IMG/VR virus record: IMGVR_UViG_3300042430_002005
Location: 1-44,217 of that record
From: a virus
Length of the DNA: 44,217 nucleotides
Reading direction: 5' to 3' (one strand)
This document shows, in pieces, positions 36,476 through 44,217 of this stretch. The position numbers were made by a program, and so were the translations under genes. The notes beneath the pieces were generated by a model that searched no databases, was not told where the DNA came from, and saw only the letters and a list, made by a program, of their open reading frames with translations. The first letter of the stretch is position 1. Each line of letters opens with the position of its first letter.

Positions 36476-36646
36476 ATGTCAAATTTTAAAAAAGAAACGA
36501 GAGGAGGAAAACGTGCTTTCTCAGGCCGCAAAAAAGCAGATTATCAAACTAAAACTATTGCATTTCGTGTTCGTCTCGAATTTGTCGAACCGATTAAAAA
36601 AATGGTAAAGGATTATGTTTCGGAGCGTTTGCAGGGTGACGCATAA
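36476..36646 (+). CDS. small RHH-like DNA-binding protein at array edge
   Basis: A 56-residue frame. Residues 9-21 are RGGKRAFSGRKKA, a basic tail. Residues 26-52 (TKTIAFRVRLEFVEPIKKMV) look like a ribbon-helix-helix strand and helix. Its stop codon TAA at 36644-36646 overlaps the left core GCATAAC of the first attC site. So it is either the last phage backbone gene or the cargo of the first cassette. The related peptide at 35978 favours phage origin. Confidence 0.6.
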   Translation: MSNFKKETRGGKRAFSGRKKADYQTKTIAFRVRLEFVEPIKKMVKDYVSERLQGDA

Positions 36647-36771
36647 CGTTCCCTCGCTTGGCGAGGTTGCTGACTTCGGAAAAATAAATATCAATTTTAA
36701 ACAAAATATTATGCGAAACGTAAATGTGAATGAACCACAAAGTCAGCAATCTTGCCAAACGAGTGTTAGTA
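36641..36771 (+). repeat. attC site 1
   Basis: Left core GCATAAC, right core GTTAGTA. Arms CTCGCTTGGCGAGG and TTGCTGACTT pair with AAGTCAGCAA and TCTTGCCAAACGAG. It contains the ATG (36711) of the following cassette gene. No GTTATGC partner for its left core was found upstream, so the array's left border is not a simple cassette junction. Confidence 0.8.
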
Positions 36772-36857
36772 ATAGTTCTTTGGATAAATTGATTTCTAAA
36801 CTTCCAGTAGTTTATGATTGGGTAAAAGAAAAATATGATTGGTTAAGATATTCGTAA
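36711..36857 (+). CDS. cassette 1 protein, start inside attC 1
   Basis: A 48-residue protein. The only ATG lies in the attC 1 loop, so about the first 19 residues (up to SCQTSV) are encoded by attC. The cassette part (LDKLISKLPVVYDWVKEKYDWL) is one helix pair with Trp and Tyr. GTT of the crossover is read as Val. A longer in-frame opening at 36615 starts inside the preceding gene and is less likely. Function unknown. Confidence 0.5.
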   Translation: MRNVNVNEPQSQQSCQTSVSNSSLDKLISKLPVVYDWVKEKYDWLRYS

Positions 36858-36993
36858 CAATCTCACGGCGTATTATTGTCGTCAGGTGGCGATAAAATAA
36901 AGACTAATTTTTAAATTTAAGACAGAACAATGAAAAAAGAAACAGACAATTCAGTTAAAAAACAAAACGACACTTGCGACAATAATGTTTTAG
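36852..36993 (+). repeat. attC site 2 (divergent)
   Basis: Left core TCGTAAC, right core GTTTTAG, less regular than the others. Arm ATTATTGTCGTCAGGTG pairs with CACTTGCGACAATAAT. It contains the ATG of the next gene at 36930. Confidence 0.6.
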
Positions 36994-37304
36994 TAGGTGG
37001 CTTTTCCGAAGAAGATGAATTACAGGCAGTTTTTTTAATTCAGGCATTTTCAGAAATCACTTTTAATAAAAGAAGAAGAAAACTTCAAGAAATTACAGGT
37101 TTTATTGATGGAGGTTGTGGCTCTTACGAAGAATACAATGAATGTGGTGTTTGGAGAATAATTGTTACAGGATATTTCAATGATTTGGAAGAATTGAAAT
37201 TAGTAATAAAAAAAATGGAAAAATACAATTGGGCATATCTTTCGGACTCACATATTCTTTTTGAAGATAATTATTTATTTTCTTCAGGAGAATGGCTTGT
37301 GTAA
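36930..37304 (+). CDS. cassette 2 protein, start inside attC 2
   Basis: A 124-residue protein. The first 20 residues (through DTCDNNV) are attC-encoded; the cassette part begins LVGGFSEEDELQAVF. It is alpha-beta with a Gly/Cys turn (GFIDGGCGSYEEYNECG) and LEELKLVIKKMEKYNW. The crossover triplet is again read as Val. The leader before ATG is A-rich (AAGACAGAACA). No family recognised. Confidence 0.6.
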   Translation: MKKETDNSVKKQNDTCDNNVLVGGFSEEDELQAVFLIQAFSEITFNKRRRKLQEITGFIDGGCGSYEEYNECGVWRIIVTGYFNDLEELKLVIKKMEKYNWAYLSDSHILFEDNYLFSSGEWLV

Positions 37305-37362
37305 CAAAACCATTTAAAAATTAACCCAACTATTGTATAGCGAATATTAGCAGTAGTTATAA
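37304..37362 (+). repeat. degenerate attC site 3
   Basis: A left core-like ACAAAAC and a right core-like GTTATAA, 59 bases end to end. The internal arms do not pair, so it seems decayed. What follows up to attC 4 holds no gene. Confidence 0.3.
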
Positions 37363-37386
37363 TACTAATACGTTTGGTAAGCTGGA

Positions 37387-37520
37387 AGATAACGTTCGAG
37401 TGCTTGCCGTTCGGTGGCAATTTCAATACCGAAGCTAACAAAATAGTAACAAACATTAAATAAGCCGAAATATTTCGGACACAACCCAAGCCTGCCACTG
37501 ACGGCAAACACTTGTTAGCG
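37387..37520 (+). repeat. attC site 4
   Basis: Left core AGATAAC, right core GTTAGCG. Arm GAGTGCTTGCCGTTCGGTGG pairs with CCACTGACGGCAAACACTT, with unpaired bases as is normal for attC. Confidence 0.8.
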
Positions 37521-37585
37521 GTTCGGTTTTTACACGGTTTAACTTCTTCGCCGTTTCAAATTGGAAGTAATAAAAATTAAATATT

Positions 37586-37876
37586 ATGTCAGAAATTAAA
37601 GAATCAAAAGATTTTATTAGAGGTGTTTTTCAAAAAGCAAAAAATCAATCTAATAAAAAGTTAGTTGTAATTTATGTTACAAAAGAGCAAAAAGAAATTC
37701 ACAGAGATTGGAATCCTGTTTATATTCCTGTTGAAACAAATCTAATTACGTTTAAAAATATTGACGCTTCTAATATTTTTGGAGATTTAAAAGAAACATT
37801 ATTCTATGTTGCCAATGTAGAGTATCAAGTTCCTTCCGTTGTTATTATTACGTTGCTTGGTCAAACTGACCGCTAA
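37586..37876 (+). CDS. cassette 4 protein, unknown
   Basis: A 96-residue protein with its own start and A-rich leader (AAATTAAATATT) 65 bases after the crossover. It is alpha-beta (KLVVIYVTKEQKEIHRDW, then FKNIDASNIFGDLKETLFYV). Its stop codon overlaps the left core of attC 5. No family recognised. Own start, unlike the attC-started genes. Confidence 0.65.
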   Translation: MSEIKESKDFIRGVFQKAKNQSNKKLVVIYVTKEQKEIHRDWNPVYIPVETNLITFKNIDASNIFGDLKETLFYVANVEYQVPSVVIITLLGQTDR

Positions 37877-38002
37877 CGTTTCTCGGCTTGAAGCAGTGGC
37901 AAACTTCGGAAACGTAAATTTTCCGTTACTACTGAATTTCTTTCGAAAGATAAACGTGATTAAACCACATATTTTGCCATTGCTTTCAAACCGATGTTAG
38001 CG
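37871..38002 (+). repeat. attC site 5
   Basis: Left core CGCTAAC is perfectly complementary to the cassette start GTTAGCG at 37514. Right core GTTAGCG. Arm CGGCTTGAAGCAGTGGCAAA pairs with TTTGCCATTGCTTTCAAACCG-like text. Confidence 0.85.
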
Positions 38003-38095
38003 CTAGTTGTGGGTTGTTAAAAATAATTCACTTTTTATTTGTTTATTACGTCTATTATACGTTACTTTGTCGTATAATATTAAAACATAGAAATT

Positions 38096-38371
38096 ATGTA
38101 TAAAGTACAATTGTTAGCAAAAGGAGATTATGAAATCAAAAGTCTTGAAGATAAAAGTATGCTTCAAGCCGTTAATGTTTTTGATGTTTGGTTAAAAGAA
38201 GACGCTTTTGATGGGGAAGTATTGTTATTGTGGGATAACGATAATTTGATTAAAGAGATTAATGTTAGAAAAAAATCAGATTGGAGGCACGGAGAAACAT
38301 ATAAAGACATTGATGAAGAGTTTTTTAAAAAAGATATAAGAAAATGGAAAAAGAAAATAGCAAGTTGTTAA
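38096..38371 (+). CDS. cassette 5 protein A, unknown
   Basis: A 91-residue protein with Asp/Lys-rich beta-like text (DVWLKEDAFDGEVLLLWDND) and a basic helical end (FFKKDIRKWKKKIASC). Upstream, at 38036-38080, ATTTG and TTACTTTG spaced about 20 bases look like a weak Bacteroidota promoter, so this cassette may bring its own. It overlaps the following small gene by 28 bases. Confidence 0.6.
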   Translation: MYKVQLLAKGDYEIKSLEDKSMLQAVNVFDVWLKEDAFDGEVLLLWDNDNLIKEINVRKKSDWRHGETYKDIDEEFFKKDIRKWKKKIASC

Positions 38372-38511
38372 GGATAGAAATGCAATTAACGGAAGAGGAA
38401 GTCGCAATTATAGAACAGATTGCAAAGGAAGAAAGCCGTTCCCGTAAAAAACAATGTGAGGTTTACATTCGTAAGATGATTTCCGATTATAAACGTAAAC
38501 GTAGCAATTAG
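38344..38511 (+). CDS. cassette 5 protein B, RHH-like
   Basis: A 55-residue protein. MQLTEEEVAIIEQIAKEESR followed by SRKKQCEVYIRKMISDYKRK has the strand-helix-helix rhythm and basic residues of small Arc/RHH or mobilisation-type DNA-binding proteins. It overlaps the gene before it by 28 bases in another frame, making this the only clear two-gene cassette. A toxin-antitoxin or regulator pair is possible. Its stop lies at the left core of attC 6. Confidence 0.6.
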   Translation: MEKENSKLLRIEMQLTEEEVAIIEQIAKEESRSRKKQCEVYIRKMISDYKRKRSN

Positions 38512-38642
38512 TGCTAACGTTCAAGCATTGCCGAAGTTGGGGATTTTGAAAACCAAATGTTCAATTTAGCAATAAAGTTTAATAGTAGTATAAAAGTTCA
38601 ATTAACCACATCTGCCCCAATTTTGGCAATGCAATGTTAGCA
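38512..38642 (+). repeat. attC site 6
   Basis: Left core TGCTAAC matches the cassette start GTTAGCG at 6 of 7; outside the core the complementarity goes on (TTAGTGCTAAC with GTTAGCGCTAG). Right core GTTAGCA. Arm AGCATTGCCGAAGTTGGGG pairs with CCCCAATTTTGGCAATGC. Confidence 0.85.
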
Positions 38643-38681
38643 GTAGCCTTTTTTCGGTCGGCGTATAAAACAAATAATAAA

Positions 38682-39086
38682 ATGAAAAATGTAGATTTTC
38701 TAAAAGAAGTTTTAATGTCAGATGCAGAATACTGGATTGTGGCAAAAGAAGTAAAGGTAAATAGAGGATTTCGTCCAGAAAGAGAAAAAGACCATATAAT
38801 GTTTATTGCAATACCTAAAGATATAAAAAGAGGTTTGAAATACGAAGAAATTACTTTACAAGAACTTGAAAAACTTAATAGAAGTTATTGCGAACAAAAC
38901 ATTTATATAAATACTGATTATCCTCCATTTCAGCTTTATGGTAAATTTTCAGATATTTATACAGGATTTCCAGTAACTCACAAAATAAGGCAATTTATGT
39001 TAGATGCTTTGGCTTTAGGGTCAGATGAAATTTGGAAATATAAAGAGTTAATTCAAGTTCCTGATGCTGTCGAGGTGTCTGCATAA
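38682..39086 (+). CDS. cassette 6 protein, unknown
   Basis: A 134-residue protein. An in-frame ATG exists at the crossover (38634), but the ATG at 38682 after AAATAATAAA is preferred. It contains MSDAEYWIVAKEVKVNRGFRP, FIAIPKDIKRGLKYEEITLQ and INTDYPPFQLYGKFSD, an alpha-beta protein with conserved-looking Pro/Tyr patches. No family recognised. A typical integron cassette protein of unknown role. Confidence 0.65.
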   Translation: MKNVDFLKEVLMSDAEYWIVAKEVKVNRGFRPEREKDHIMFIAIPKDIKRGLKYEEITLQELEKLNRSYCEQNIYINTDYPPFQLYGKFSDIYTGFPVTHKIRQFMLDALALGSDEIWKYKELIQVPDAVEVSA

Positions 39087-39092
39087 GGTTAC

Positions 39093-39227
39093 TGCTAACG
39101 TTAAAGCATATACGCAGTTACGGATTAAGTAAATCCTAATCATCTAATTAAACAACAATAAAACCAAGTACAAACAAATACTATAAATCAAGACTATTGC
39201 CGTAATTGCTTATATGCAGTGTTAGCA
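39093..39227 (+). repeat. attC site 7
   Basis: Left core TGCTAAC perfectly matches the cassette start GTTAGCA at 38636, and the match extends outward (AAGGTTACTGCTAAC with GTTAGCAGTAGCCTT). Right core GTTAGCA. Arm GCATATACGCAGTTACGG pairs with CCGTAATTGCTTATATGC. Confidence 0.88.
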
Positions 39228-39251
39228 GTAGTTATTTTAAACACAAACTAA

Positions 39252-39440
39252 ATGGAAAAGAAATTTATAATTTACAATTTTATGACAAAATCATTCTATT
39301 GTGGGAATTACGGAACTATACTTGAATGGAGTATAGATTTTTATAATGCAGAATTTTATTCTGATAAAGAAGATGCTGAAAGATACATTTCAACTCTTTC
39401 TGATGGATTGTATCAAATTATCGAGGTCTATCGCCCATAA
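39252..39440 (+). CDS. cassette 7 protein, unknown
   Basis: A 62-residue protein starting 30 bases after the crossover with a short leader (CACAAACTAA). Its text KKFIIYNFMTKSFYCGNYGT, then DKEDAERYISTLSDGLYQII resembles small proteins in which the Asp/Glu and aromatic residues alternate in an alpha-beta fold. Unknown function. The smallest fully self-started cassette here. Confidence 0.6.
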   Translation: MEKKFIIYNFMTKSFYCGNYGTILEWSIDFYNAEFYSDKEDAERYISTLSDGLYQIIEVYRP

Positions 39441-39444
39441 TTAC

Positions 39445-39576
39445 TGGTAACGGTTCTCGGCTTTGCGATGGTGGGGAAATCGAAGCCGAAATTTTCAGCC
39501 CACCACTAAACTTAAATAGAAGTACAAATGATTGATATAGCACTAAAGCCCCACTATTGCAAAACCGATGTTAGCG
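39445..39576 (+). repeat. attC site 8
   Basis: Left core TGGTAAC matches the cassette start GTTAGCA at 6 of 7, continuing outward (AATTACTGGTAAC). Right core GTTAGCG. Arm CGGCTTTGCGATGGTGGGG pairs with CCCCACTATTGCAAAACCG. Nearly the same as attC 16. It carries the ATG of the following methyltransferase at 39528. Confidence 0.88.
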
Positions 39577-40211
39577 GAAGTCCTTCATCGGAATTGTTCA
39601 ATATGGATTGTATTGCAGGAATGAAACATTATCCTGATAAATATTTTGATTTAGCAATAGTTGACCCTCCTTATGGATTAGGTTCAAAATTGGCTCACGC
39701 TGGCAATGGTAAAAATTCACAGTCTAAATTTACGGATGATTTTAAATTGAAAAATTGGGATAATCAAATACCACATTATGAATATTTTATTGAATTGTTT
39801 AGGGTATCTAAAAATCAAATCATTTGGGGCGGAAACTATTTTTTAGACCATTTACCATCAACTCGTGGATTTATAACTTGGGATAAAATGGTTTTCATTC
39901 CTACAATGTCAAGAATAGAGATGGCGTGGACTTCATTTGATAAACTACCATTGCTAGTTCAAATAAATAACAATGATGCAAATAGAATACATTTAACGCA
40001 GAAGCCGATTAAGTTATATGATAGATGTATTGATTACGCAAAATTAGAAGCAGGAAGCAAAATTTTAGATACTCATTTAGGTTCTGGTTCAAGTAGAATA
40101 TCGGCATATTTCAATAAAATGAATTTTGTCGGTTTTGAGGTAGATACTGAATATTGTGAAATGTCAAACAAAAGATTTAATAATGATGTCGCTCAGATGC
40201 GGTTGTTTTAG
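39528..40211 (+). CDS. DNA adenine/N4-cytosine methyltransferase, start inside attC 8
   Basis: A 227-residue AdoMet-dependent DNA methylase of the beta order: catalytic motif IV DPPYGLGSK at about residue 47, the target region in the middle, and the AdoMet-binding ILDTHLGSGSSRI near 182 at the end. The conserved family start (ELFNMDCIAGM) follows the crossover closely, and the only good upstream ATG lies in attC 8, which gives the leader MIDIALKPHYCKTDVSGS. Solitary methylase, no nuclease beside it, so probably a guard against host restriction. Length normal. Confidence 0.85.
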   Translation: MIDIALKPHYCKTDVSGSPSSELFNMDCIAGMKHYPDKYFDLAIVDPPYGLGSKLAHAGNGKNSQSKFTDDFKLKNWDNQIPHYEYFIELFRVSKNQIIWGGNYFLDHLPSTRGFITWDKMVFIPTMSRIEMAWTSFDKLPLLVQINNNDANRIHLTQKPIKLYDRCIDYAKLEAGSKILDTHLGSGSSRISAYFNKMNFVGFEVDTEYCEMSNKRFNNDVAQMRLF

Positions 40212-40217
40212 GATTAC

Positions 40218-40311
40218 CGCTAACGGTTTGCGGCTTGGCGAAGGCTGCCTAACGGAAAGTTCAAAGTTCACAGAATGTTTAATGGCAGCTTTTGCCAAAC
40301 CGCTGTTATGT
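40218..40311 (+). repeat. attC site 9 (short, 94 bp)
   Basis: Left core CGCTAAC is perfectly complementary to the cassette start GTTAGCG at 39570. Right core GTTATGT. Arm TTTGCGGCTTGGCGAAGGCT pairs with AGCTTTTGCCAAACCGCTG-like text. Shortest clear site. Confidence 0.88.
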
Positions 40312-40350
40312 GCTGGGCGGTTTATCAGCACTAAATTTAATTTAAGAAGA

Positions 40351-40515
40351 ATGTCAGTAGAAGAATTAATTAGAGCATTAGAAAAAATGCCAAAAGACAA
40401 AATAGTAGTTGTAACCGAACCTGATGGAATTGGTTGGGATAACATTGGACAAGTGATTGAAGATGGTAGCACGGTTAAAATCACAATGGATGGAAATCAT
40501 CCTTTTGAAGACTAA
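40351..40515 (+). CDS. cassette 9 protein, unknown small
   Basis: A 54-residue protein starting after AATTTAAGAAGA. Its text MSVEELIRALEKMPKDKIVV, then GIGWDNIGQVIEDGSTVKIT looks like a small alpha-beta fold known to occur in phages and plasmids (ELIxxLxxxPxDxxVxI). A longer in-frame opening starts in attC 9 (ATG at 40281) and would add 23 residues, the attC-derived ones again. Function unknown. Confidence 0.6.
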   Translation: MSVEELIRALEKMPKDKIVVVTEPDGIGWDNIGQVIEDGSTVKITMDGNHPFED

Positions 40516-40528
40516 TGTATAACCTTGC

Positions 40529-40654
40529 ACATAACGTTCCGCAGCTACACGAGGTGCAAGGCTTCGTGACTGCATATTTTCTATTTAAGATAAAAGTTCA
40601 ATGCGAAACGGCAATTCCACTAAATCCTTGCATCTTGTGTAACTGCTGTTGGCA
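40529..40654 (+). repeat. attC site 10
   Basis: Left core ACATAAC is perfectly complementary to the cassette start GTTATGT at 40305, an uncommon core shared by no other cassette here. Right core GTTGGCA. Arm GCAGCTACACGAGGTGCAAGG pairs with CCTTGCATCTTGTGTAACTGC-like text. Confidence 0.88.
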
Positions 40655-40722
40655 GACGGTTTTATTATTCGGTTTAACTTTCACACCGATTTTAAGTGAA
40701 AGTAAATTTAAAACTATTTATT

Positions 40723-40815
40723 ATGTCTTTTAAAAAACTTATTATTTTAGATTTTGTGTTTTCACTGGTATCTTTAGCGCTTGCTTTTTTAATTTTTTAT
40801 CTTTTTGATTTGTAA
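40723..40815 (+). CDS. 30-residue hydrophobic peptide
   Basis: A short frame with a basic start and one hydrophobic span (MSFKKLIILDFVFSLVSLAL). It overlaps, in antisense, the 3' end of the membrane protein gene at 40742-41221. It has an ATTTATT leader. It may be a cassette peptide or only a by-product of the antisense gene's membrane-coding sequence. Confidence 0.3.
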   Translation: MSFKKLIILDFVFSLVSLALAFLIFYLFDL

Positions 40816-41221
40816 AAAACAACATACCAGACCAAAAAAGTATTCTAAAAATTGTTGATATGATACCAATTCTAATTAATTCTTTAAAGCACAATTTTAA
40901 TTCATATGAAATATATGTTAGAAATGAAACCCAGAATAAAGCTATAATTCCTAATACCGCTATTAATTTTTCATATTGAAATCCTTTTATTTCATTTGGG
41001 TAGTTTGTCGTAAATATCATAAACAAAACTAAAGGTACTATATTTAGCAATAACCAGCAAACTGTTAAAGATAAACACACGCCTATTATTTCTAATGAAC
41101 TTTTTTTTAAAATATTTTCTTTAAATAAATATAATTGCAAAAAACATATGAATGTAATTCCTATAATTGATAATAATGCGTTTTTTTGTTTTGATTCTAT
41201 TTCAAATATATCTTTTATCAT
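40742..41221 (-). CDS. reverse-oriented cassette membrane protein
   Basis: A 159-residue protein with four likely membrane spans (about 15-33, 43-71, 84-106 and 115-137) and a basic C-terminal tail (NQKDKKLKKQALKIPVKTQN). It is the only minus-strand gene with good support. The cassette would be read against the array, so it needs its own promoter; I find no clear TAnnTTTG on that strand. The leader before its ATG is A/T-rich. Reverse-oriented cassettes are often toxin-antitoxin or stress genes, but nothing specific is seen. Confidence 0.65.
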   Translation of the reverse strand: MIKDIFEIESKQKNALLSIIGITFICFLQLYLFKENILKKSSLEIIGVCLSLTVCWLLLNIVPLVLFMIFTTNYPNEIKGFQYEKLIAVLGIIALFWVSFLTYISYELKLCFKELIRIGIISTIFRILFWSGMLFFTNQKDKKLKKQALKIPVKTQNLK

Positions 41222-41270
41222 AAAGTTAATATTTAATTTTTTTATTTACCACGTTTTTTTCTAAACTGTC

Positions 41271-41277
41271 TGCCAAC
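41271..41277 (+). repeat. attC site 11, left core only
   Basis: TGCCAAC is perfectly complementary to the cassette start GTTGGCA at 40648, and the match extends (GTCTGCCAACTAGCAG with CTGTTGGCAGAC). So the antisense gene is a true cassette. The right half of this attC was not found; the region 41278-41407 holds A/T-rich text and a run of 19 A instead. Confidence 0.6.
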
Positions 41278-41386
41278 TAGCAGATATACGCACCCTAAAA
41301 TCAACTATTTAAAAAACAGAACGTTAAGAAAAAAATAATGTTAACGAAATCTTAAAAAATAAAAATTTGAAAAATTACATCCAAAT

Positions 41387-41405
41387 AAAAAAAAAAAAAA
41401 AAAAA
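41387..41405 (+). repeat. poly-A run of 19
   Basis: Nineteen A directly before CAATGG, the start of the gene at 41408. It lies where the lost right half of attC 11 should be. It may aid initiation in this A-rich system, or mark a deletion or an unreliable stretch of sequence. Confidence 0.7.
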
Positions 41406-41407
41406 CA

Positions 41408-41767
41408 ATGGAACTTAAAGATTTTAAACAACACATTGAAAGTTTTCCAAACGGAACAAAATTTGAATTTGGTATCTCTCAACCTTTTTCTTGGAGAGGT
41501 GTATATGCCGAAGTAGCATTTGAAATGCTTGAAAAACCAATGACAAAAGAAGAAATTCTAGCAAATATCGAACTTGCTTACACAGAAACTTTTTACGGAT
41601 ATAAAGGTGGAGAATACAGATACAATGACCATACAGATATTCATTTTGAAACTGATTGCGGTAGTTGGACTGCCGGTGGTTATGTTTCTCGTTGGATTGC
41701 TAAAATTGAAGAAAAAGAAGAGTACCAAAGTCAAGAGGATAGACTTGTTAAGTTAGCGTTCGCCTAA
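41408..41767 (+). CDS. cassette 11 protein, unknown
   Basis: A 119-residue protein. NGTKFEFGISQPFSWRGVYAE is followed by KPMTKEEILANIELAYTETF, GYKGGEYRYNDHTDIHFETD and GSWTAGGYVSRWIAKIEEKE. I recall related proteins from phages and mobile elements with the same order (SWRGxYxEVAF, then GYKGGEYxYxDxTxVHFE). Function unknown. It starts directly after the poly-A run. Confidence 0.65.
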   Translation: MELKDFKQHIESFPNGTKFEFGISQPFSWRGVYAEVAFEMLEKPMTKEEILANIELAYTETFYGYKGGEYRYNDHTDIHFETDCGSWTAGGYVSRWIAKIEEKEEYQSQEDRLVKLAFA

Positions 41768-41773
41768 AATGGC

Positions 41774-41905
41774 TTATAACGTTTTCGGGCTTGGCGAAGG
41801 GCAGGAATTAGAAAACGAAATTATCAATTAAAAATAAAATTATGTTAGAAAACGAAAACATCAATAAACCACAGAACCCCGCCTTTTTGGTAGGTGCTGT
41901 TATAA
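41774..41905 (+). repeat. attC site 12
   Basis: Left core TTATAAC, right core GTTATAA. Left arm GGGCTTGGCGAAGGGCAGG is shared with sites 13 and 15; the right arm is more divergent (CCCCGCCTTTTTGGTAGG). It holds the start codon of the next gene at 41842. Confidence 0.75.
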
Positions 41906-42048
41906 GCCGTACTTATCATTTCATGGATTGGGTAGATGGGAAACACGTTGATGAAATGATAAAGGCAGTTAATAGAGAAACCGCTATTAAGCAAATGAAA
42001 GTTAAATACCCAAACCACGATTTTGCTTATGTGTGTGAGTTGTCTTAG
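41842..42048 (+). CDS. cassette 12 protein, start inside attC 12
   Basis: A 68-residue protein. The first 19 residues (MLENENINKPQNPAFLVGA) are attC-encoded, the crossover gives Val, and the cassette part begins ISRTYHFMDWVDGKHVDEMI. The latter reads like a small alpha-beta protein (AVNRETAIKQMKVKYPNHDF). No start is present in the cassette before ATG codons inside the conserved-looking part. Leader TAAAAATAAAATT. Function unknown. Confidence 0.6.
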   Translation: MLENENINKPQNPAFLVGAVISRTYHFMDWVDGKHVDEMIKAVNRETAIKQMKVKYPNHDFAYVCELS

Positions 42049-42054
42049 TATGGC

Positions 42055-42187
42055 TTATAACGTTTTCGGGCTTGGCGAAGTGGCGGATTAGAAAGCACAA
42101 AAGCTGAATAAACCACGAAAGTTTCAAAAAAGCACCAAAGTTCAAATATAGCACTATCGCCACCATTTTGGCAAACCCTTGTTAGCG
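42055..42187 (+). repeat. attC site 13
   Basis: Left core TTATAAC perfectly matches the cassette start GTTATAA at 41899. Right core GTTAGCG. Arm GGGCTTGGCGAAGTGGCG pairs with CGCCACCATTTTGGCAAACC. Confidence 0.88.
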
Positions 42188-42234
42188 GTAGTACTTTTTT
42201 AATCATAGGGTTTGTCAAACTAAATAATTTAAAA

Positions 42235-42579
42235 ATGGCAACAATAATTAATGCAGGTTCTGAAAATAAAGGAGGAACTTTTGAACAGGCAAAAATAAAT
42301 GCAGAAAAATGGTTAAACAATATTCACGAAGAAGGATTTTTAGAAGTAGAAATGACTTTTGTTCAACAACATAAAGATGGTGATTTCCAATTTGATTTTA
42401 AACATACGGTTACTCAAAAAACTGTTTCGTTGGAAATTCACGGATTTACGGAAGAAGAGTGTCAAAAGTTTAGATTTAATCCACGAGTATATTGGAATGG
42501 ATCGTCAACTGCTGACCCAAAAATAGAAGACTGGTTAAACGAAGGCTTTAAATATCGTGTCGAGTATTACAGGTCGTAG
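42235..42579 (+). CDS. cassette 13 protein, unknown
   Basis: A 114-residue protein with own start after TAATTTAAAA. Text NAGSENKGGTFEQAKINAEK, then EVEMTFVQQHKDGDFQFDFK and EIHGFTEEECQKFRFNPRVYW suggests an alpha-beta protein. The reading frame is open from the crossover (GTT) into the gene, in the valine phase, although the attC itself gives no start in that frame. Function unknown. Confidence 0.65.
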   Translation: MATIINAGSENKGGTFEQAKINAEKWLNNIHEEGFLEVEMTFVQQHKDGDFQFDFKHTVTQKTVSLEIHGFTEEECQKFRFNPRVYWNGSSTADPKIEDWLNEGFKYRVEYYRS

Positions 42580-42585
42580 TATTAC

Positions 42586-42718
42586 CGCTAACGTCCGCCC
42601 AGCTTTGCGAAGGCAGGGATTAGGATTCCAAATGTTGAATATTCGCACAATGCCAAATAGTAGTACTGGTGTTGAGTTTACCACTACTGCCCTGCTTTTG
42701 CAAAACTGGCTGTTATAT
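42586..42718 (+). repeat. attC site 14
   Basis: Left core CGCTAAC perfectly matches the cassette start GTTAGCG at 42181, extending outward (GTAGTATTACCGCTAAC with GTTAGCGGTAGTAC). Right core GTTATAT. Arm CAGCTTTGCGAAGGCAGGG pairs with CCCTGCTTTTGCAAAACTG. Confidence 0.88.
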
Positions 42719-42768
42719 GCCGTTTTTGTTTGCAGTCAAATTTTTAACTTTTAAATAATAAGAATAAA

Positions 42769-43017
42769 ATGAGTAAAGCAATTAAAGAACATTTAAAACA
42801 AATATCCGCACAAGAATTAAAAAAATTTAGGAGCGAAATATATACTGTTTATGCTTCAAGTTCAAGATTAGTAACTAAAATGGGTGTCGTAAAGTTAGGC
42901 ATAAACGGGGAAGGAAAATATGTAGTTATCCAAAGAGTAGAAGAAACCGATTTAATCCACGATTTTAAAAACCCATTGTACGCAATAAAATTTTATCAAA
43001 AGTTGGTGTCTTCTTAA
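42769..43017 (+). CDS. cassette 14 protein, unknown
   Basis: An 82-residue protein with own start after AATAAGAATAAA. First third is a Lys-rich helix (KEHLKQISAQELKKFRSEI); the remainder is beta-like (YTVYASSSRLVTKMGVVKLG, then KYVVIQRVEETDLIHDF). Unknown function. Stop codon close to attC 15. Confidence 0.65.
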   Translation: MSKAIKEHLKQISAQELKKFRSEIYTVYASSSRLVTKMGVVKLGINGEGKYVVIQRVEETDLIHDFKNPLYAIKFYQKLVSS

Positions 43018-43023
43018 AATGGC

Positions 43024-43149
43024 ATATAACGTTTTCGGGCTTGGCGAAGTGGCTGAACCCGAAGCTAAATAGAATTACTAAACTTTAAAATTAAAAACGA
43101 ATGATTGATAGAATTACTGAACAGCCATTTTGCCAAACACGTGTTACAG
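43024..43149 (+). repeat. attC site 15
   Basis: Left core ATATAAC perfectly matches the cassette start GTTATAT at 42712. Right core GTTACAG. Arm GGGCTTGGCGAAGTGGCTG pairs with CAGCCATTTTGCCAAACAC. It carries the ATG of the next methyltransferase at 43101. Confidence 0.88.
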
Positions 43150-44081
43150 GCAGTACGGGTTTAAATGTACTATCACTTTTCGACGGTATGTCTTGTGGTC
43201 AATTAGCCTTACAAAAGGCAGGAATAAAAGTTAATCAATACTTTGCAAGTGAAATAAAACCACACGCAATAAAAGTAACTCAACATAATTTTCCTAATAC
43301 AATACAATTAGGTAGCGTATTAGATGTAGAAGCAAGTGATTTGCCTAAAATTGATTTAATGATAGGTGGAAGCCCTTGTCAAGATTTTAGTTCAGCTAAT
43401 AAAGAAAAATTAGGATTACAAGGCGAAAAATCAGGATTGTTTTATGAGTATTTAAGACTTTTAAAAGAATGTCAGCCAAAATACTTTTTACTTGAAAATG
43501 TGGCAATGGATGATTATAGCTATGCAGCAATAAGTGAAATGCTTGGAACTTATCCAACAAACATAAATAGTGAGCTTGTATCAGGGCAATTAAGACAAAG
43601 AAGCTATTGGACTAATATAGGTCCAGAAAGTTTTGATTTATTTGGTAATAGATATTCAATGATACCACAACCGAGAAACAAAAAAATAAAGTTTCAAGAT
43701 TTATTAGAGAATGGATATACAGATAGATTAAAAGCAAGGTGCTTACTTGAAAGTGAAAGTAGAAATCCGGGTAGTACATTTTCATCATTAAGAAGATATA
43801 TGATACAAGGATTTATAAATGTAATTTTCAAGGATAAAGAAACTTACGAAAAGTATTCTAAAATGACCGAAGATGAAATGAAAGCAAATTTTGTTGATGG
43901 CGATATTAGAAAACTAAACCAAACAGAAATGGAACGATTACAAACAGTACCCAATGGATATACAAGTATTCTAAAAAGAAATGAAGCAGCTTGCTTATTG
44001 GGCGATGGTTGGACAGTTGATACTATTGCACATATTTTTTCATTCATAGAAGTAGAATGTTTAAATTATGCACATTCGTAG
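43101..44081 (+). CDS. DNA cytosine-5 methyltransferase, start inside attC 15
   Basis: A 326-residue C5-methylase. Motif I LSLFDGMSCGQLAL (about residue 24), motif IV GGSPCQDFS with catalytic Cys (about 92), motif VI LLENV (about 131), motif VIII LRQRSYW (about 164) and motif X LGDGWTVDTIAH near the end. The family start (NVLSLFDG) is only a few codons after the crossover; the leader MIDRITEQPFCQTRVTGS comes from attC 15. No start codon exists between crossover and motif I except by losing the motif. Probably protects DNA from host restriction. Confidence 0.88.
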   Translation: MIDRITEQPFCQTRVTGSTGLNVLSLFDGMSCGQLALQKAGIKVNQYFASEIKPHAIKVTQHNFPNTIQLGSVLDVEASDLPKIDLMIGGSPCQDFSSANKEKLGLQGEKSGLFYEYLRLLKECQPKYFLLENVAMDDYSYAAISEMLGTYPTNINSELVSGQLRQRSYWTNIGPESFDLFGNRYSMIPQPRNKKIKFQDLLENGYTDRLKARCLLESESRNPGSTFSSLRRYMIQGFINVIFKDKETYEKYSKMTEDEMKANFVDGDIRKLNQTEMERLQTVPNGYTSILKRNEAACLLGDGWTVDTIAHIFSFIEVECLNYAHS

Positions 44082-44087
44082 TATTGC

Positions 44088-44217
44088 CTGTAACGTTAAA
44101 CGGCTTTGCGATGGTGGGGAAATCGAAGCCGAAAAGTTTAATTTATTACTAATGTTTAATCAAGGTACAAATGTTTGTTTTAGCACTAAAGCCCCACTAT
44201 TGCAAAACCGATGTTAC
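44088..44217 (+). repeat. attC site 16, cut by window end
   Basis: Left core CTGTAAC perfectly matches the cassette start GTTACAG at 43143. Arm CGGCTTTGCGATGGTGGGG pairs with CCCCACTATTGCAAAACCG, the same arms as attC 8. The window ends inside the right core, GTTAC. Confidence 0.88.
44171..44217 (+). CDS. start of a next cassette gene inside attC 16 (partial)
   Basis: An ATG at the same place as the methylase start in attC 8 opens a frame MFVLALKPHYCKTDV, in the valine phase, that runs off the window. Twelve of the fifteen residues are shared with the attC 8 leader. If the next cassette is in frame, it would use this start. Confidence 0.45.
   Translation, partial: MFVLALKPHYCKTDV

What the first reader, a model, noticed from the sequence alone, without database searches (positions are those of the whole stretch)
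36711..44217. attC sites that supply the start codon: cassette genes without their own ATG
At 36711, 36930, 39528, 41842, 43101 and (cut) 44171 the ATG lies in the loop of the preceding attC, behind an A-rich leader, and translation crosses the recombination point into the cassette. All six use the same phase, reading the crossover triplet GTT as Val. For the two methylases the conserved family start lies a few codons after the crossover, so the attC start is practically required. This would make attC a portable, frame-compatible translation start, so that expression and N-terminus of a gene depend on which cassette precedes it.
Basis: partly seen in the sequence, partly recalled or inferred. 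Interest (0 to 1): 0.92.

Follow-up and report, generated by a model that had tools for sequence, protein, structure and literature searches.

The report
Phage gene cassettes starting inside recombination sites
In many viruses of Bacteroidota bacteria, swappable gene cassettes carry their gene back to front compared with bacterial integrons, so the DNA recombination site (attC) sits in front of its own gene and also serves as that gene's translation start and first 13-35 amino acids.

Summary
The window is a tailed-phage contig with about 14 attC sites and no recombinase. In 500 distinct viral attC/gene junctions, genes whose frame runs through the attC core and that lack an ATG of their own have an in-frame ATG inside the attC in 88 of 93 independent cases (permutation mean 53, maximum 71) and in 12 of 12 hold-out cases. 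These ATGs carry the A-rich -14 to -11 leader of Flavobacterium starts. Bacterial arrays do not show this. The attC is not the preceding cassette's, however. It co-varies with the downstream gene (109 to 0), array breakpoints lie at the attC's other end (TAA^CG), and relative to attC the phage genes run opposite to those in Bacteroidota chromosomes (453:25 against 31:182). Each phage cassette is therefore attC-first: start codon in its own attC, and often a stop codon in its own core. Phase is not universal (89 phase-0 and 89 phase-1 starts), but attC and gene stay frame-matched even when the same gene sits behind a different attC (46 of 47 pairs). Isolated Flavobacterium phages show the same layout around shuffled DNA methylases.

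The parts
36644..36767 (+). attC (first of the array) following a phage gene whose stop codon is the TAA (36644-36646) of the TAAC core
   Evidence: score 62
36711..36857 (+). small CDS starting inside its attC (MRNVNVNEPQSQQSCQTS|VSNSS...)
36850..36988 (+). attC-like hairpin with atypical cores (doubtful attC) containing the ATG at 36930
   Evidence: stem folds, detector does not call it
36930..37304 (+). CDS starting in the doubtful hairpin, no Pfam match
37391..37516 (+). attC; gene behind it (37586-37876) has its own leader and ATG
37875..37998 (+). attC; gene behind it (38096-38371) has its own start
38516..38638 (+). attC; gene behind it most likely starts at its own ATG 38682
   Evidence: sequence
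39097..39223 (+). attC; gene behind it (39252-39440) has its own start
39449..39572 (+). attC with start codon 39528 of the N6/N4 DNA methylase
   Evidence: score 71
39528..40211 (+). N6/N4 DNA methylase (PF01555) starting inside its own attC, phase 0
   Evidence: homologues
40222..40307 (+). attC; small gene 40351-40515 with own start
   Evidence: score 79
40533..40650 (+). attC preceding the only minus-strand cassette gene (40742-41221)
41778..41901 (+). attC with start codon 41842
   Evidence: score 63
41842..42048 (+). 68-aa CDS starting inside its attC, phase 0
42059..42183 (+). attC; gene 42235-42579 with own start
   Evidence: score 71
42590..42714 (+). weakly scoring but well-folding attC; gene 42769-43017 with own start
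   Evidence: score 11, MFE -41.5
43028..43145 (+). attC with start codon 43101; inferred crossover TAA^C between 43029 and 43030
   Evidence: score 77; crossover inferred
43101..44081 (+). C5 cytosine DNA methylase (PF00145), phase 0, family start codon replaced by TTA
43030..44093 (+). inferred complete attC-first cassette (attC body + C5 methylase + terminal TAA)
   Evidence: inference
44092..44215 (+). last attC, cut by the contig end, with ATG 44171 in phase 0
   Evidence: score 64

Best explanation
These are integron-type cassettes carried by Bacteroidota phages without a recombinase (a CALIN). In them the gene is inverted relative to attC compared with chromosomal integrons. One mobile unit runs from the base after TAA^ through the attC hairpin and the gene to the next TAA. 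The attC terminal loop doubles as 5' leader and start region: an A-rich, SD-less leader and an ATG lie in the loop, and translation runs through the attC 3' arm into the gene, adding about 13-35 residues. Because the crossover lies at the gene's 3' end, directly behind a TAA that often is the stop codon, an inserted cassette brings its own start, frame and stop and leaves its neighbours' frames intact. Host integron-type recombinase acting in trans probably moves the cassettes, mainly DNA methylases used against host restriction. Shown here: frame matching, leader signature, linkage, breakpoints, opposite polarity. Inferred: actual translation from these ATGs, the recombinase, the advantage.
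For: Frame matching: 88/93 independent attC-cassette pairs against a permutation mean of 53 and maximum of 71 in 20,000; 12/12 in hold-out loci found by methylase, not by attC. The cassette head GTTACAGGCAGTACGGGTTT precedes two different methylases, one needing phase 0 and one phase 1, and every junction read long enough to judge has the attC ATG in the phase that gene needs. Same gene behind other attCs keeps phase in 46/47 pairs; in the one exception (L098 against L387) the core phase shifted and each attC ATG still fits its gene. Leader: A at -14..-11 is 61/75/90/81% for attC starts, 61/74/72/68% for own-start genes and 39/52/50/34% for out-of-frame ATGs in the same attCs, matching the F. 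johnsoniae -14 to -11 A motif (PMC6847099). Unit boundaries: attC co-varies with the downstream gene 109:0; shared upstream sequence typically ends 4-7 nt past the start of AAC; three indels among phages mumin, filifjonk and tooticki sit at TAAC|GTT. Polarity: viral genes read out of attC 453:25, bacterial genes read into it 182:31; per locus 76 against 1 viral and 1 against 47 bacterial, rest mixed; attCs beside Bacteroidota recombinases have the same relative orientation in all 6 loci that show one. Isolates: GenBank CDS of methylases start inside attC.
Against: No proteomic or ribosome-profiling data were available. The start region is not less structured than the rest of the attC loop in silico (0.65 against 0.64 unpaired). 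The attC-coded peptide shows only weak codon-position bias (76/55/86) and no clear indel-by-three signal, so the peptide itself is at most weakly constrained. Five of 93 pairs lack an in-frame attC ATG. The one recombinase beside a bacterial array that I scanned fully, and all TIGR02249 matches in 45 genomes, fall below the integron-integrase cut-off, so the identity of the acting enzyme is open. Viral polarity is mixed in 36 loci, partly because the per-locus measure is noisy.
Confidence: 0.86

Rival explanations
1. One reading: attC belongs to the preceding cassette, crossover at G^TT, and any incoming gene in the right phase borrows the start codon of whichever attC stands before it.
For: The same gene is found behind different attCs with phase kept (46/47 pairs), and similar attC bodies stand before different genes ('--' pairs).
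Against: Left-only linkage of attC is 0 against 109 right-only. Same upstream gene with same attC but different downstream gene: 0. Breakpoints lie at TAAC|GTT. Polarity is opposite to bacterial integrons. Phase is not universal.
Confidence: 0.06
2. Chance open frames: attC happens to be open upstream of the genes and the real starts are internal or non-ATG codons.
For: Longest-ORF calling favours upstream ATGs; phase 1 could use a GTG or ATG at the core (CCC GTG TTA).
Against: 88/93 against a null of 34-53; 12/12 hold-out; all 88 ATGs lie at least 41 nt upstream of the core with a Flavobacterium-type leader that out-of-frame ATGs lack; the C5 methylase family start is TTA/TTT here.
Confidence: 0.03
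3. attC bodies are an independently exchangeable module: besides whole attC-first cassettes, recombination at the second core (GTT side) or within the conserved 3' arm swaps the start region of a gene, kept in frame by selection.
For: C5 methylase 92-98% identical over the compared stretch in window, L001, L002 and L266 but, in the pairs flagged as different, with attC bodies only 55-61% identical, and N-termini MIDRITEQPFCQTR, MHRSSIELQNLIEPQKPSFCQTR, MIIESTNVDLAQKPSFCQTP, MIESSQPPFCQTR.
Against: The exact breakpoint cannot be read because the 3' arm is conserved; fast divergence of an unconstrained leader could mimic a swap; much rarer than whole-unit movement.
Confidence: 0.35

Closest known systems
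CALIN gene-cassette arrays in phages (PMC9892861, incl. Polaribacter phage P12002L)
   Same: attC clusters without integrase in virulent phages, cassettes with DNA methylases; one P12002L attC recombined with attI1 through IntI1 in that paper; P12002L has the same attC-first polarity in my scan
   Different: That paper reports two arrays with typical orientation and 'divergent' attCs in P12002L; its main text never mentions start codons
ORF-11 / ORF-17 / ORF-18 in attI1 (Hanau-Bercot 2002, reviewed in PMC8876359)
   Same: A recombination site carries a translation start and the frame crosses the core
   Different: attI, not attC; a short leader peptide that stops and re-initiates (translational coupling), serving any first cassette; here the real gene is read in frame from its own attC
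Short ORFs in attC that help ribosomes through the hairpin (as described in PMC8876359; attC effect on translation: Jacquier 2009)
   Same: Translation inside an attC affects expression
   Different: attC of the upstream cassette, termination-reinitiation, no fusion
A-rich Kozak-like translation starts of Flavobacterium (PMC6847099)
   Same: A enrichment at -14 to -11 before the ATG
   Different: Here embedded in a recombination site
Baltic Flavobacterium phages (Muminvirus, PMC7077304)
   Same: Isolates that carry these cassettes; plating efficiency tracks methylase content
   Different: The paper does not mention integron or attC

Membership tests
Integron gene-cassette array (CALIN) | Two or more attC sites: paired R and L boxes, variable terminal loop, TAAC/GTTR cores | tested here: met
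   12 attCs in the window above threshold plus one weaker site; about 830 in all loci against about 10 expected from shuffles
Integron gene-cassette array (CALIN) | No integron integrase nearby | tested here: met
   No tyrosine recombinase in the window
Integron gene-cassette array (CALIN) | Units gained or lost with boundaries at one core of attC | tested here: met
   Breakpoints at TAAC|GTT in isolates and viral contigs
Integron gene-cassette array (CALIN) | Sites recombined by an integron integrase | not testable with these tools
   Reported for an attC of P12002L with IntI1 in PMC9892861; not for this window
Canonical integron cassette (gene followed by its attC) | Gene reads into its own attC | tested here: not met
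   Viral genes read out of attC 453:25, bacterial controls into it 182:31
Canonical integron cassette (gene followed by its attC) | attC lies 3' of its gene and outside the reading frame | tested here: not met
   181 of 243 frame-crossing viral and isolate junctions start in attC
Complete integron | intI + attI + Pc | tested here: not met
   No recombinase in the window; attI and Pc not searched

The most novel reading that the evidence does not exclude
Bacteroidota phages have evolved their own class of integron cassette, with the gene flipped relative to attC, in which the recombination site is at once mobility signal, translation start and N-terminal coding sequence in one of three frames. 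attC bodies can also be replaced independently, so phages shuffle not only which methylase they carry but also its N-terminus and translation level.
Probability: 0.35. Interest if true: 0.87.

Novelty: new variant of a known kind. Interest (0 to 1): 0.76.

Why it matters
Textbook cassettes are gene-then-attC, with attC as non-coding 3' DNA that hinders translation of the next gene. Here a whole phage population uses the reverse layout and turns the recombination hairpin into a start signal. That makes a cassette self-sufficient (own start, own stop, neutral to neighbours) where no integron promoter exists. It links integrons to the fast turnover of anti-restriction methylases in phages and gives testable N-terminal signatures (..FCQTR|V.., ..FAKPV|L..) for proteomics.

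Tried and rejected
A palindrome-only attC search was too noisy, and a PWM trained on a contaminated seed set drifted; replaced by a seeded arm PWM plus complementarity that gives almost no hits in shuffles. First reading of the statistics as 'portable start of the preceding attC' was dropped after the isolate breakpoints and the linkage test. Universal GTT phase: rejected. Start codon preferentially in unpaired loop: no signal beyond the loop as a whole. Coding constraint on the attC peptide: weak or inconclusive. L295, a MAG contig sharing a cassette with a phage, looked like bacteria-phage sharing but its array is attC-first throughout, so it is more likely a phage contig in a MAG. Open-access searches found no earlier report of attC-initiated cassette genes; subscription papers and preprints were not covered.
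Full report
WHAT THE WINDOW IS. The record is a 44,217-bp virus contig without a tyrosine recombinase. It has caudovirus genes: large terminase, portal, tape measure, tail fibre, primase/helicase, NinB. From 36.6 kb to the end lies an array of attC sites and small genes including an N6/N4 methylase (39528-40211, PF01555) and a C5 methylase (43101-44081, PF00145). Phage arrays of this kind, CALINs, are known (PMC9892861).

THE OBSERVATION. I built an attC detector from hand-picked window sites (two arm profiles plus arm complementarity). It gives about 830 sites in 384 loci against about 10 expected from shuffles at the same cut-off. It attCs in the window, plus a weaker one at 42590. The hairpin around 36930 folds well but has atypical cores and is not called. 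All six frames read the 3' core GTT as Val. The C5 methylase has TTA where its free-standing relatives have ATG (ATG AAT GTA TTA TCA.. against TTA AAT GTA CTA TCA..), so it has no start of its own before motif I.

IS THE attC ATG A REAL START? I collected viral loci by attC arm, by methylase and by cassette head, and bacterial loci by attC arm. Of 500 distinct viral junctions, 117 have a frame of at least 60 aa in phase 0 or 1 that crosses the core without an own ATG within 60 nt. In phase 0, 44/48 and in phase 1, 67/69 have an open in-frame ATG in the attC; the pool of viral attCs offers these phases in 31% and 42%. Collapsed to 93 independent attC-cluster x cassette-cluster pairs, 88 match; permuting attCs among the same set gives a mean of 53 and never more than 71 in 20,000 trials. 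In bacterial arrays there is no such effect of comparable size: 5/15 and 3/10, with a pool of 13-14%. A hold-out set found only by N6/N4-methylase similarity gives 12/12, in all three phases. All 88 ATGs lie 41-105 nt upstream of the core and carry A at -14..-11 in 61/75/90/81% of cases. The phages' own-start genes show 61/74/72/68%, while out-of-frame ATGs in the same attCs show 39/52/50/34%. Ribosome profiling of F. johnsoniae identified this A enrichment at -14 to -11 as a start feature (PMC6847099).

A NATURAL EXPERIMENT. The same 20-nt cassette head GTTACAGGCAGTACGGGTTT precedes two different methylases. One needs phase 0 (VTGSTGLNVLSLFDG), the other phase 1 (LQAVRVLNLYACLGG). Each stands behind several different attCs, and in every junction long enough to judge the attC ATG is in the phase that gene needs. 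More generally the same gene behind another attC keeps its phase in 46 of 47 pairs. In the exception (L098 against L387) the core phase differs and each attC ATG still fits its gene. So phase is not universal (89 phase-0, 89 phase-1 and 3 phase-2 starts) but is locked to the gene.

WHOSE attC IS IT? Four results contradict this. (1) For pairs of viral junctions with at least 85% identical attC bodies, the downstream gene alone matches in 109 pairs, the upstream gene alone in none; bacterial loci give 11 and 2. (2) For pairs with the same upstream gene, 'same attC, different downstream gene' never occurs; both differ in 14 viral and 3 isolate-viral pairs, and the shared sequence typically ends 4-7 nt after the start of AAC, that is at TAAC|G(TT). 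(3) In the isolated Flavobacterium phages mumin, filifjonk and tooticki, which are otherwise about 99.9% identical here, three cassette indels have boundaries at TAAC|GTT, and each unit consists of an attC plus the gene behind it. (4) Measured with the same detector, viral genes read out of attC (453:25) and bacterial genes read into it (182:31); per locus 76 viral loci are uniformly 'out' and 1 'in', against 1 and 47 for bacteria, the rest mixed. The canonical G^TT is therefore the TAA^CG at the other end of the site, and the GTT read as Val is the partner core. Phage cassettes carry their gene inverted relative to attC.

HOW IT MOST LIKELY WORKS. A phage cassette runs C-G..attC..gene..TAA. 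It brings leader, start, frame and stop; in 133 of 465 cases the upstream gene's stop codon is the TAA of the core itself. In the array each insertion puts a complete translation unit behind the previous stop codon without touching neighbouring frames, which suits an array that has no integron promoter. Arms pair well in the RNA (84%), but the start region is not more open than the rest of the loop, and the attC-coded peptide is only weakly constrained. So the frame and leader matter more than the residues. The recombinase is not in the phage and presumably comes from the host. P12002L, whose attC recombined with attI1 by the bottom strand and not the top strand in PMC9892861, has the same attC-first polarity in my scan, but I could not check which strand that paper called bottom.

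WHAT REMAINS OF THE PORTABLE START. Nearly identical C5 methylases in the window, L001, L002 and L266 have clearly different attC bodies and N-termini. So attC bodies are sometimes replaced, and the attC ATG stays in frame with the gene. Whether by recombination at the second core, by homologous recombination over the conserved arm, or by fast divergence cannot be decided here.

BIOLOGY. In Muminvirus the cassettes are largely DNA methylases, and Nilsson et al. (PMC7077304) reported that plating efficiency on LMO6 tracks methylase content. The paper does not mention integrons. The array is thus probably an anti-restriction shuffling site (inference).

NOVELTY. Phage CALINs, attI1 ORF-11 coupling and attC hairpin effects on translation are known (PMC9892861, PMC8876359). 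I found no report of systematically inverted, attC-first cassettes with the start codon in attC (open-access papers only). I rate it a new variant of a known kind.

Noticed in passing
L328:301-2043; loci L388-L417: Recombinases in Bacteroidota genomes with attC arrays (some directly beside an array) match TIGR02249 (integron integrase) only below its cut-off; where checked, only about 22 aa bridge model positions 177-239, roughly where the integron-specific extra region lies, so they look XerA-like. Could be an integron integrase without the usual patch.
   Followed up: partly
L295 (Bacteroidetes MAG WAS_Bin_9): attC-first array of phage type in a bacterial MAG, sharing attC and gene with viral contig L133; probably a phage contig binned with the host.
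   Followed up: partly
window 40742-41221 (-): One cassette gene on the minus strand; its cassette starts GTTGGCAGACGG and ends CTGTCTGCCAAC, followed by a degraded attC.
   Followed up: no
L098:1037 and L387:3864: Homologous methylase-like genes whose phase at the core differs (2 and 0), each with a fitting attC ATG: a frame change compensated across the site.
   Followed up: partly
L384, L385, L387 (Muminvirus isolates): Sibling phages differ by whole attC-first cassettes; the published plating-efficiency difference attributed to methylases may be a cassette polymorphism.
   Followed up: partly
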